A DNA stretch of 64,000 nucleotides, taken from assembly GCA_037975125.1 (NCBI GenBank), contig CM075853.1, forward strand, positions 31,470,795 through 31,534,794, written 5' to 3'. Made by a program: the position numbers and the translations under genes. Shown one piece after another: positions 22,101 to 25,100 of this stretch. The stretch's first letter is position 1, and every line of letters begins with the position of its first letter. The notes beneath the pieces were generated by a model. The model saw only the letters and a program-made list of their open reading frames with translations, did not search any database and had not been told where the DNA came from. The DNA is from Latrodectus hesperus. Taxonomy: Eukaryota; Arthropoda; Arachnida; Araneae; Theridiidae.

Positions 22101-25100
22101 TTAAAGATAAAAATGGAATTTTTTCCCTTTGTTCTATGCACATATTTTACGCACCAGAAATAATTCAATCAGGAATACATTAAAAATAGGTGGTCGAACC
22201 CACGAGTTGTTAAATTGAATCCTAAAGCTAAAACCGATGAGTTAAAAACTCAACTTGGATCAAAAAATAAAAGTTAATTTGAAGATATTTTTGTTTTTGT
22301 TAGAAAAAAATTTCTTATTGTTCCTTTTATTAAAAATACTTTTTTTTTCATTGTAAAACAGATCATGAACACACTTACCTCTACCATAGTATTGGCGACA
22401 GTGAAATAATTAGATTTGTGCAGAACACTGATATTGAATGTTGATTTGAAAGATGGTTCATCAAAGCATGGGAATGCCCTTCGAGCATAAATAGGTTCAA
22501 AAAGAGATGCCGCAATGTCCCTGAGGAAAATAACAATTAATTAATTTTTATTTTATTACACTAGTTGTTGCGAAAACGAAAAATAAAAGTAAATATTTAT
22601 TACAAAAATTAAATCTGAAAAAGGAATACACAACTTTTAATTTATAATACTAAAATGGATTTTTGGGGAGAAACTGAATATGTTGTATTAAATGTTACAT
22701 AATTTTTGTGATATATTTAAATGAGCTTCATAAATGAATGAATGTTTTGACAAATAAACTATATACTAAATATAGACTTAAATATTTACAATTTCAAGTA
22801 AAAACTATAATTTGGAGCATGGAGTTAATACAAAGTTAATAAAGTATTCAATAACTTAAAAAATATAAAAATGTAGTAAAGCTTTTTTGTTACAGTGATT
22901 GAAATTAATCGCAATTTTTGATTTGACGTTGCTCACAAAATATTCTAAAATCCAGTTTTTGTAAATTTGTCAAGAATTCGATTGGATAATTACCTTTTGG
23001 GAATATTTATTTTAAATAGATGGTCATATTTTTTTAAGTGCTGTAATAGGAAAATATGATTGACTTTCAAACACCCTCTCCAATTAACGTATTGGTAGAA
23101 AACTAAAAATAATCTTTGAATTTAGCTATGCTGCAGACTGCAAAATTATTGAAAGCTTTTAAGGCTTTTTTTTAAATTCAGTGTATATAGCTTTTTTATT
23201 GCTTATCAGTAACACAGCAACTATCTCCCATTATGTAACATTAAATTGGATTGACTCGTGACACTGCATCTAAAAGATGGCATTTTACCACAGCGCCAAA
23301 ATAAGGCCAAACTTTATATGATACTATACGTAGTACACAGAGCCTAAAAAGTAACAATCATTGTAAAATATTCTAACATATGTCATTTAGGAAGTTTTTT
23401 TAACGTAAGAGGAAAACTCCCAAGACACACCCGACATATGCGCATCAACAATATAACTCCAATCCCTCACTGCTTACCAGCGGTCAAGGTTAAATACACT
23501 ATCTTCTACACTGAAGAGGATGGTTGTATTTCTGCACCATTGTTAGTTCTTGAAAAATTTAATTGATACAGAAGCATATCATGCAAATAACTAATAAGCG
23601 AGCGATCAAACATGGAATGAATTACTACGAAGCGCTAAAATTCTTAAGTGCCGAATAATAAATTATAATGATATTTGTTAAAGCGTTAATATTTCAGTAA
23701 TTTGTTTCACTTTCTTTTATTAATAGGGAATTAGTATTATTTATACTCTATTATATAGTATGAAAGACATGCATTCTAGAAAATGAAAGACATTCAAAAC
23801 TTCAAAAACTGTTATTTTTAACATGTCATTTAAAAAGTTCTTCAATTATTTCCCAGTGTTTATAAAATTTTCAAAGAAAACAGATCTAATAATTGATTGT
23901 TTTAAAGCTTAAAATAAAAATGGTTATCATTATTGCAATTAATAAAATAGAAAAAGAATCGAATTATTCATCTCATTGCAATAAATCTTTAATTTCATAA
24001 TCATTAATGCTTTATTGTTAATATTAATTACATGAAAATAGATATTTACCTTGTTTCGTTAGTATCAGGATCAAAATAGGAACTTTTATATAGACCTCGC
24101 AAAGAGGTAGTCAAAGGACCATTAAATTCAAAGTACAATCTGTATCTCCCCTCAGGTAATTTATTGGCGGCTTTAACAACAAAATAATCATTATCCTTAT
24201 ATTCAAACACTTTCTCTAATTGTACAGGTTTTTCATCATCCATTGACGTCACTTCCGTCTTCGTTATGTTCAAGCCCATAGCATGAACTATAATACAGTC
24301 ACTAGATTTCTGCATTGCTATCGTAGTAGCAACAGTCCCGTTAAAGAAATCTTCATCTAGTACTGGATACAACAGAAGATCATAGTGTTCTGGTATAATG
24401 TGAGAAGGCAATCTGTAGTAATACCAAGGGGCGGATCCTTCCACTTCTAGCCAAGATCTTATACTTCTTTTGTAAGTCTTCAGCCATCGAATATTATTTT
24501 GCACCGTCTCTAATGCTTGTTGGCGATTTCTTTTTCCAGCTCCTGCATCAGGATACTTGGCAAAAAATTCTTCCATCTAGAATGGTTGATAACTCTTTTT
24601 ATTAGACACACACAACACATACATACATTAAAATAACTTCAAGTTTAAAATCTGTAATTGTAAAAACCACATCAATGCTTTACAATTTAAAAATGCACCA
24701 GAAAATATCATTCAGAGACATAGAAAATTCTGGTTTATTGGTCGAAATTGCATTAATAAAGTTACACACGTTGTTAAATTTTACTCGAAAGGAAAAAAGA
24801 GCTTTTTAAATTTAGGTAAAACTTTGTATATCTATGAAAATCGTGAAACGAGAGCTTAACTGAATTATTTGATAATTAATAGTTAATATAGTTTTAAATA
24901 TTATCTAAATTTGAGATGATCAATGGTACTGAGATACACAAAGTATAGAACTGTTTATCTAAAATTAAAACTAGTTGGTCTCTCTAAGAACATTAATTGC
25001 TATAACAACAAAGTTCATTCATTAAAAGAAAGTGAGAGTATCTAGCCGAAGCTTTGTGGGAGAATAATTTTTCCCTCAAAACTTCTAACTATTGATGGCC

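What the first reader, a model, noticed from the sequence alone, without database searches (positions are those of the whole stretch)
24050..24576. One exon fuses the end of one M1 aminopeptidase to the start of the next
Seen: a 527-bp open exon in which a typical M1 C-terminal helix pair (ending RSIRSWLE) is followed after about seven residues by a typical M1 N-terminal start (RLPSHIIPEHY). Flanking exons on both sides are in phase. Known: single-unit M1 enzymes stop after that helix and new units start with a signal or anchor. Inferred: the gene makes a tandem double aminopeptidase, in the way that somatic ACE carries two catalytic domains. I do not know whether such genes have been described in this lineage.
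Basis: partly seen in the sequence, partly recalled or inferred. Interest (0 to 1): 0.88.

Follow-up and report, generated by a model that had tools for sequence, protein, structure and literature searches.

The report
Three aminopeptidases fused in one gene
One gene in what is likely a spider genome has predicted exons that encode three zinc-aminopeptidase units in a single reading frame behind one predicted membrane anchor, an arrangement also annotated in other spiders, ticks and a horseshoe crab, so one protein would likely carry three peptide-trimming sites.

Summary
In detail: the minus-strand exon 24050-24576 encodes the last helices of one M1 unit and, after a short linker, the start of the next, with no stop between. 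It is one of two such exons. The window cuts a larger gene: in its own assembly a predicted 57-exon, 2720-residue frame on one contig runs from an anchor exon 46 kb above the window to a stop 40 kb below it, with three M1 units. Each keeps the zinc ligands, catalytic Glu, GxMEN Glu and Tyr. Seventeen compared exons share intron phases across all three units. Five other M1 loci found in this genome show one catalytic exon each (lower bounds). Multi-unit relatives are annotated in spiders, ticks and a horseshoe crab. Trees put their first units in one clade, so the flagged junction most likely predates the horseshoe crab-arachnid split, though adding fast-evolving mites blurs the grouping of later units. 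Eight literature searches listed no description of multi-unit M1 enzymes. RNA, protein and activity are untested.

The parts
24050..24576 (-). Junction exon J (19th of 57 in the model): C-terminal helices of unit 1, linker LEVEGSA, N-terminal domain of unit 2
62874..63015 (-). U1 exon e2 (S1-pocket stretch TSKFQPTYAR, PCFDEP)
60630..60764 (-). U1 exon e3
49041..49161 (-). U1 exon e4
44622..44776 (-). U1 exon e5 (GAMEH, HEMAHM)
41125..41238 (-). U1 exon e6 (WFGN...WLNE, third zinc ligand)
36288..36422 (-). U1 exon e7 (catalytic Tyr, FDAISY)
34884..34949 (-). U1 exon e8
33875..33955 (-). U1 exon e9
33514..33668 (-). U1 exon e10
31527..31606 (-). U1 exon e10b
30361..30491 (-). U1 exon e11
30020..30223 (-). 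U1 exon e12
28740..28813 (-). U1 exon e12b
28520..28621 (-). U1 exon e13
27352..27522 (-). U1 exon e14
25391..25531 (-). U1 exon e15
25222..25303 (-). U1 exon e16
22379..22520 (-). U2 exon e2 (S1-pocket stretch ASLFEPIYAR, PCFDEP)
20477..20608 (-). U2 exon e3
18026..18146 (-). U2 exon e4
15707..15858 (-). U2 exon e5 (SAMEN, HELAHM)
14265..14378 (-). U2 exon e6 (WFGD...WLNE, third zinc ligand)
13884..14012 (-). U2 exon e6b (catalytic Tyr, FNSITY)
12114..12176 (-). U2 exon e6c
9842..9919 (-). U2 exon e7
8300..8466 (-). U2 exon e8
8127..8209 (-). U2 exon e8b
6629..6753 (-). U2 exon e9
4068..4274 (-). U2 exon e10
1655..1728 (-). U2 exon e11
1001..1102 (-). U2 exon e12 (last exon inside the window; the gene continues below position 1 through U2 e13-e15, junction exon J2 and unit 3)

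Best explanation
The minus-strand exon 24050-24576 is the first of two junction exons in one predicted 57-exon gene whose reading frame encodes three M1 aminopeptidase units, and the gene likely makes a single membrane-anchored protein with three active sites. Shown by sequence: one contig carries, in order and without a stop, an anchor exon, U1, exon J, U2, exon J2, U3 and a stop; exon J joins what in a single-unit gene would be the last exon (phase 0 in) to what would be the first exon (phase 2 out) without its anchor; the metal-binding and catalytic residues are intact in all three units. Inferred: each unit folds as an ordinary M1 enzyme, hinged by a short flexible linker, on the outer face of the cell behind one type II anchor. 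The three sites would trim peptide N-termini with different preferences: U1 has Lys at the floor of the S1 pocket where vertebrate aminopeptidase A has a calcium-binding Asp, so it plausibly prefers acidic residues without calcium, while U2 and U3 have Leu and Gln in this animal and mostly Gln in relatives. A terminal-digestion role at the midgut surface is the most likely setting, by analogy.
For: J has two M1 matches in one open exon. Whole gene on one contig, G000:C4, ATG at 31581769 down to a stop codon at 31430723-31430721: 57 exons, 2720 aa, no internal stop. Three HMM units, at residues 5-963, 966-1833 and 1834-2717, and only one strongly hydrophobic segment (residues 14-32, hydropathy 3.33; next best 1.51) (on a model one residue longer). 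Intron phases identical in U1, U2 and U3 for 17 of 17 compared exons; start columns of U1 and U2 equal for 15 of 17 and one apart for two. Zn ligands, catalytic Glu, GxMEN Glu and Tyr kept in 36 of 36 unit rows from 13 proteins: the window's and its spider, tick, horseshoe crab and unnamed relatives (2 rows are this window's). U1|U2 gap of 4 residues or fewer between HMM envelopes in 15 of 16 relatives examined; 14 of 16 have three units, whole or in part. First exons of four other M1 loci in this genome each carry their own signal or anchor, by eye; five other M1 loci show one catalytic exon each against three here. U3 of this gene pairs with Parasteatoda U3 (74% identity, 100/100). Uninterrupted two-unit and three-unit frames on 6415-nt and 8769-nt contigs look like transcripts (P0007, P0123). 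S1 residue 213: U1 Lys in 10 of 10 rows with data (2 gaps), U2 Lys in 0 of 13. Model of a relative spanning a junction (P0013): pLDDT under 50 at 129-131 and 133-146, the linker; best PDB match 4kx7. A spider midgut proteome lists 'Glutamyl aminopeptidase (3)' (PMC5013568, passages only).
Against: No RNA or peptide from this animal was seen. Arg-887 of human aminopeptidase A is Phe in this U1 and the calcium-site Asps are absent, so acidic preference of U1 is a guess. GxMEN is SAMEN in U2 and PGMEH in U3, variants whose activity is unknown. Scorpion relatives of U1 in the database are single-unit. Oedothorax has an 84-residue gap at the first junction and a changed GxMEN (ASEN) in U1. In U3, two start columns differ from U1's by more than one (3 at e7, 16 at e13) and there are two extra exons. 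Proteolytic cleavage between units after synthesis cannot be excluded.
Confidence: 0.8

Rival explanations
1. Two or three separate neighbouring genes. Exon J is used either as a last exon by an upstream gene or, from an internal start, as a first exon by a downstream gene; the joined frame is coincidence.
For: Most described M1 enzymes are single-unit (recalled); some long insect entries have gaps of 66-149 residues between units, or a hydrophobic stretch there by eye, and may be annotation fusions (P0191, P0011). Scorpion U1 relatives stop after the same helix.
Against: J has no stop after the U1 helix and no signal or anchor before U2, unlike the first exons of four other M1 loci in this genome. 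The same short junction recurs in 15 of 16 relatives examined, and uninterrupted frames on short contigs cross such a junction (P0007, P0123, P0233).
Confidence: 0.05
2. Assembly artefact: two loci wrongly joined.
For: None found.
Against: Units U1 and U2 are only 42% identical, so they are not a collapsed repeat. The contig is 123 Mb. Separate records of other spiders, ticks and a horseshoe crab show the same order.
Confidence: 0.01
3. The chain is made but works as separate enzymes: it is cut at the flexible linkers, or a shorter transcript ends after U1, so the fusion only fixes equal dose and location.
For: The linker is predicted to be flexible. A two-unit form (P0007) and single-unit scorpion U1 relatives exist, so unit number varies.
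Against: Linkers are very short and, by eye, share no basic cleavage site beyond the PW and RLP of the next domain. No U1-only spider transcript was seen, but RNA data were not searched.
Confidence: 0.14

Closest known systems
Single-unit glutamyl aminopeptidase (aminopeptidase A, ENPEP), peptidase family M1
   Same: Each unit has the M1 domain set (Pfam PF17900, PF01433, PF11838 in the window's model), HExxH-18-E, GxMEN Glu and Tyr; the N-terminal type II anchor layout; U1 falls with arthropod ENPEP-like enzymes.
   Different: Three units on one chain; calcium-site Asp-213 and Asp-218 (mouse numbering, PMC5587309) are Lys and Tyr in U1 and Leu and Tyr in U2 of the window.
Multi-unit M1 proteins annotated automatically, e.g. 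Parasteatoda LOC107439767 (2622 aa), Tachypleus LOC143229476 (2738 aa), 'putative aminopeptidase-2' of Ornithodoros (2758 aa)
   Same: Same three-unit order and short linkers; the window's U1 and U2 are 71% and 59% identical to Parasteatoda's, and the gene's U3 74%.
   Different: Those are database models for which no description in print was found; this window adds the exon structure and the junction exons.
Somatic angiotensin-converting enzyme (family M2); recalled
   Same: One anchor, repeated catalytic domains with different substrate preference, made by internal duplication.
   Different: Different peptidase family and action (C-terminal dipeptides), two domains, anchor at the C-terminus.
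Carboxypeptidase D (family M14); recalled
   Same: Three tandem exopeptidase domains behind one anchor.
   Different: Removes C-terminal residues; its third domain lacks catalytic residues, whereas all three units here keep theirs.

Membership tests
Peptidase family M1 (gluzincin aminopeptidases) | Zinc site HExxH with Glu 18 residues on | tested here: met
   HEMAHMWFGNLVTMEWWDDLWLNE, HELAHMWFGDLVTMEWWNDLWLNE, HELVHQWFGNLVTMKWWNDVWLNE; 36 of 36 unit rows
Peptidase family M1 (gluzincin aminopeptidases) | Exopeptidase motif GxMEN | tested here: inconclusive
   Glu kept in 36 of 36 rows; GAMEH in U1, SAMEN in U2, PGMEH in U3 of this gene; His at the last place in 10 of 11 invertebrate single-unit rows
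Peptidase family M1 (gluzincin aminopeptidases) | N-terminal, catalytic and ERAP1-like C-terminal domains | tested here: met
   Pfam finds two stretches of each in the window's model and three of each in Parasteatoda; U3 of this gene tested with our own HMM only
Peptidase family M1 (gluzincin aminopeptidases) | Aminopeptidase activity | not testable with these tools
   needs expressed protein
Glutamyl aminopeptidase (aminopeptidase A) | S1 calcium site Asp-213 and Asp-218 (mouse) | tested here: not met
   Lys and Tyr in U1, Leu and Tyr in U2 of the window; site described in PMC5587309 (passages)
Glutamyl aminopeptidase (aminopeptidase A) | Arg-887 (human) | tested here: not met
   Phe in the window's U1; U1 rows: N 3, K 3, F 2, R 1, L 1, S 1, gap 1 of 12. 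Column placed with a recalled human sequence
Glutamyl aminopeptidase (aminopeptidase A) | Descent from the ENPEP branch | tested here: inconclusive
   U1, U2 and U3 group with arthropod ENPEP-like enzymes, but the deep forks around vertebrate ENPEP have support 13 only
Multi-unit chelicerate M1 aminopeptidases (database kind, no formal family) | Two or more M1 units joined by linkers of a few residues behind one N-terminal anchor | tested here: met
Tandem exopeptidases such as somatic ACE and carboxypeptidase D (works like, not a member) | Own peptidase family (M2 or M14) | tested here: not met
   units are M1 by Pfam

The most novel reading that the evidence does not exclude
Chelicerates carry a membrane-tethered peptide-trimming line: one protein with three aminopeptidase sites of different taste, the first using a lysine in place of calcium to take acidic residues and the next two taking other residues, so that a peptide released by one site meets the next at high local concentration. 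The first fusion is older than the horseshoe crab-arachnid split, and the third site was added at least twice, once in horseshoe crabs and at least once in arachnids.
Probability: 0.27. Interest if true: 0.75.

Novelty: new variant of a known kind. Interest (0 to 1): 0.57.

Why it matters
M1 aminopeptidases (APN, ENPEP, ERAP1/2) are known as single-unit enzymes (recalled; the PDB matches listed hold no natural chain of more than one unit). A multi-unit form shared by spiders, ticks and a horseshoe crab, with the key active-site residues kept in 36 of 36 sampled units, raises a direct question: does linking exopeptidases of different specificity give faster or fuller peptide breakdown? Spiders and ticks live on protein-rich liquid food, so the enzyme may be a main terminal protease (inference). 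The gene also shows fusion at base level: a last exon and a first exon became one exon with no intron between, while 17 intron phases were kept. That gives a clean system for studying how repeat enzymes arise. It also warns that genome pipelines may either split such genes or wrongly fuse true neighbours.

Tried and rejected
Reading the exon on the plus strand: seven stops (error); the exon is on minus. Looking for a fourth unit: the last exon ends in a normal M1 C-terminal helix and two stop codons, and exon 1 starts with the anchor. Inactive-unit idea (pseudo-enzyme): not supported at sequence level, key residues are present in 36 of 36 rows. One ancient triplication of U2 and U3 shared by horseshoe crab, ticks and spiders: rejected (p-AU 0.0006 for all U2, 3.5e-5 for all U3). 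One shared triplication within arachnids: NOT rejected (p-AU 0.081 and 0.175). Trees on the first half of the alignment recover neither the U1 clade nor the tick or spider U2+U3 pairings, and the second half lacks the spider pairing. Adding mites, lgn1018 and other rows left out before (52 rows) keeps the U1 clade of spiders, ticks, horseshoe crab, lgn1866 and scorpions (100/99) but no longer resolves one clade of all later units. In both trees that hold it, the first unit of a mite protein (EuroglyphusA_u1, very long branch) falls outside the U1 clade; forcing it in is borderline (p-AU 0.045). That check made me lower the novel-case odds from 0.30 to 0.27. Gene conversion between U2 and U3 could also mimic separate origins. 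Rfam: no match in the window. Literature: nine searches, eight aimed at multi-unit M1 enzymes and at the S1 pocket, listed no paper describing such proteins; some searches listed only 20 of 63, 20 of 2361 and 8 of 40 papers, seen as titles and abstract beginnings, and the library lacks most subscription journals, so this is weak evidence of absence.
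Full report
WHAT WAS CHECKED. The flagged exon lies on the minus strand, 24576 to 24050. Its translation is MEEFFAKYPDAGAGK...RSIRSWLEVEGSAPWYYYRLPSHIIPEHYDL...NET. A search of solved structures gives two separate matches to human glutamyl aminopeptidase 4kx7: residues 1-43 to its last helices (47.6 bits) and 47-169 to its first domain (62.6 bits), overall E 9.8e-32. The exon has no stop, signal or anchor between the two. Ten residues separate RSWLE from RLPSH.

THE WINDOW. 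A bait search (recalled human ENPEP) and a splice search gave 32 exons in the window, 63015 down to 1001, in one frame of 1433 residues without stops (the end of U2 e12). Unit 1 lacks its first exon in the window and unit 2 its last ones. Pfam finds two Peptidase_M1, two ERAP1_C and two Peptidase_M1_N stretches in this model. Some ends (U1 e5, U1 e7, U2 e8b, U2 e11, U3 e5, e11, e12 and e12c) were chosen by homology over splice score.

THE WHOLE GENE. The window's assembly is held: 1.64 Gb, window at C4:31470795-31534794 of a 123-Mb contig. Searches with exon J and with the Parasteatoda relative placed the missing parts on the same strand. Exon 1, 46 kb above the window, codes MAKVFVPQSSCIFAIVIFVLLVLSVGLLVFVLKG, a predicted type II anchor, then the first domain of U1. 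Below the window come U2 e13-e15, a second junction exon J2 (...VASWFQRNVYMPWKNVRLPRHVHPTK), U3 and two stop codons. The corrected model has 57 exons and 2720 residues over about 151 kb. An HMM made from single-unit relatives finds three units at 5-963, 966-1833 and 1834-2717, and the only strongly hydrophobic stretch is residues 14-32 (on a model one residue longer).

INTRONS. Seventeen exons of each unit were compared. Phases are the same in U1, U2 and U3 in 17 of 17. Start columns of U1 and U2 agree in 15 of 17 and differ by one in two; U3 agrees with U1 except at e7 (3 columns), e10 (1) and e13 (16). U3 has two extra exons, one after J2 and one before e13. J starts in phase 0, like the last exon of U3, and ends in phase 2, like exon 1. 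So J is a last exon joined to a first exon stripped of its anchor, with no intron between. J2 is the same kind of exon, with one extra intron just inside the first domain of U3.

CONTROLS IN THE SAME GENOME. Four other loci with a first-domain exon (C8, C6, C14, C4:5.69 Mb) each start with their own signal or anchor in that exon, by eye. With a scorpion single-unit query, the catalytic WFGN exon appears three times at this gene (31511895, 31485065, 31458482) and once at each of five other M1 loci (C4:5.70 Mb, C5, C6, C8, C14) (48 of 73 candidates scored, so counts are lower bounds).

RELATIVES. The first protein search (region across J; 120 of 1836 matches listed) gave multi-unit proteins in spiders and ticks. 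The second, allowing longer proteins (120 of 333 listed), showed nearest relatives with three units: Parasteatoda 2622 aa, Nephila 2711, Caerostris 2680, Oedothorax 2658, Tachypleus 2738, Ornithodoros 2758, Amblyomma 2771. I cut 16 of the listed relatives into units: 14 show three, whole or in part (four have only a piece of U1), and two show two; the U1|U2 gap is 4 residues or fewer in 15 of 16, Oedothorax being the exception with 84. U1 and U2 of the window are 71% and 59% identical to Parasteatoda's, U3 74%, and the trees place them inside spiders, so the host is most likely a spider; its name was not given. Two frames sit on short contigs, 1866 residues on 6415 nt and 2622 residues on 8769 nt. 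Since the gene is rich in introns, these are probably transcripts; that is inference from contig length. A third search with a 361-residue query across the junction (73 matches) found one further frame covering 97% of it at 45% identity (P0233, 529 aa on a 3950-nt contig).

Many other animals have annotated multi-unit M1 proteins (brachiopods and molluscs with four units, rotifers and bees with three). Those sampled in the 73-row tree (Lingula, Rotaria, Bombus, Athalia, two sea stars, Drosophila willistoni) lie outside the spider-tick-horseshoe crab clades, so they look like separate events. Some insect entries have long gaps or a hydrophobic stretch between units and may be annotation fusions.

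TREES. In a 73-row tree the first units of spiders, ticks, Tachypleus and the unnamed lgn1866, plus three scorpion single-unit enzymes, form one clade (99), and their second and third units, together with Medioppia_u2 and lgn1018, form another (99). A careful 42-row tree agrees (97/99 and 99/99), as does a mixture model (99 and 99). Most simply, the U1|U2 junction flagged here existed before horseshoe crabs and arachnids parted. Results against: a mite first unit (EuroglyphusA_u1, long branch) falls outside the U1 clade in both trees that hold it (forcing it in, p-AU 0.045), and with mites and other omitted rows added the later units no longer form one supported clade, though the U1 clade stays at 100/99. 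Among later units, U2 and U3 pair within Tachypleus (100/99), within ticks (90/99) and, weakly, within spiders (79/84). Holding all U2 or all U3 together is rejected (p-AU 0.0006 and 3.5e-5), but arachnid U2 alone or U3 alone is not (0.081 and 0.175). The third unit therefore arose at least twice, or gene conversion blurs the record. Half-alignment trees are weaker: the first half lacks the U1 clade and the tick and spider pairings, and the second half lacks the spider pairing. Scorpion enzymes sit inside the U1 clade (excluding them is rejected, p-AU 0.007), suggesting loss of later units or an extra single-unit copy.

ACTIVE SITES. In 36 unit rows from 13 proteins both zinc His, the catalytic Glu, the third-ligand Glu, the GxMEN Glu and the Tyr are kept in 36 of 36 (mites not included). 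The S1-floor residue (Asp-213 of mouse aminopeptidase A, part of its calcium site per PMC5587309, passages seen) is Lys in 10 of 10 U1 rows with data, never Lys in 13 U2 rows (10 Gln, 1 each Leu, Glu, His) and Lys in 1 of 11 U3 rows (9 Gln, 1 Met). Ten of 11 invertebrate single-unit rows also have Lys. Arg-887 of human APA is Phe in this U1. So U1 is not a calcium-type aminopeptidase A by its residues; Lys may serve acidic residues directly (inference). Different S1 residues at fixed chain positions suggest that the sites differ in preference.

STRUCTURE. A relative whose frame holds the end of one unit and all of the next (P0013, 1018 aa, 15-row alignment) was modelled at mean pLDDT 83.0, pTM 0.80; pLDDT falls under 50 at 129-131 and 133-146, the junction, and the fragment before it is only moderately confident (block means 51-83). 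Best PDB match is 4kx7, TM 0.93 by target length. The listed PDB sequence matches of Parasteatoda (60 of 112) contain no natural chain longer than about one unit. The picture is beads on a string with a flexible hinge; relative orientation is not resolved.

FUNCTION. A spider midgut study (N. cruentata; PMC5013568, passages only) lists 'Glutamyl aminopeptidase (3)' among enzymes found by proteomics, which I read as three forms, proposes glutamyl aminopeptidase for final protein digestion and reports a lack of aminopeptidase in digestive fluid. Which gene those proteins belong to was not tested. A gut-surface, anchored triple enzyme fits but is inferred.

VERDICT. Observation confirmed; the double is a triple; the architecture is annotated in databases and was not found described in the literature searches made. 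One chain in vivo, activity and specificity remain untested.

Noticed in passing
window 412-849, 5290-5416, 7476-7886, 13464-13823, 51374-51942: A dispersed repeat family (73-86% identical between copies) sits outside the exons, in introns of the gene.
   Followed up: partly
window 8582-8861: A short tandem array, near-identical copies about 80 bases apart (97% identity), in a U2 intron.
   Followed up: no
window 56566-57211, minus strand: Frames resembling the RNase H end of a non-LTR retrotransposon, by eye only, in the 11.5-kb intron between U1 e3 and e4.
   Followed up: no
G000:C4 31533810-31581104: The first intron is about 47 kb, about a third of the whole gene (coordinates).
   Followed up: no
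P0126 and P0003 (Nephila); P0005 and P0009 (Argiope): Two orb-weaver species each have two different multi-unit M1 proteins, so the fused gene seems duplicated there.
   Followed up: no
P0127 Lingula, P0130 Saccostrea, P0132 Mytilus, P0139 Athalia: Four-unit M1 proteins; the Lingula and Athalia units group apart from the chelicerate ones, which suggests repeated invention of multi-unit M1 enzymes.
   Followed up: partly
P0014, P0015, P0018 (scorpions): Single-unit enzymes with anchor and normal end that nest inside the U1 clade: possible loss of later units, or an extra copy.
   Followed up: partly
P0129 (Medioppia), P0223 and P0225 (Euroglyphus): Mite multi-unit M1 proteins evolve fast; the Euroglyphus first unit falls outside the U1 clade and the Euroglyphus linkers look different by eye.
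   Followed up: partly
L010, G000:C4 31465892-31464217: The second junction exon J2 is followed by an extra intron just inside the first domain of U3, absent at the first junction.
   Followed up: partly
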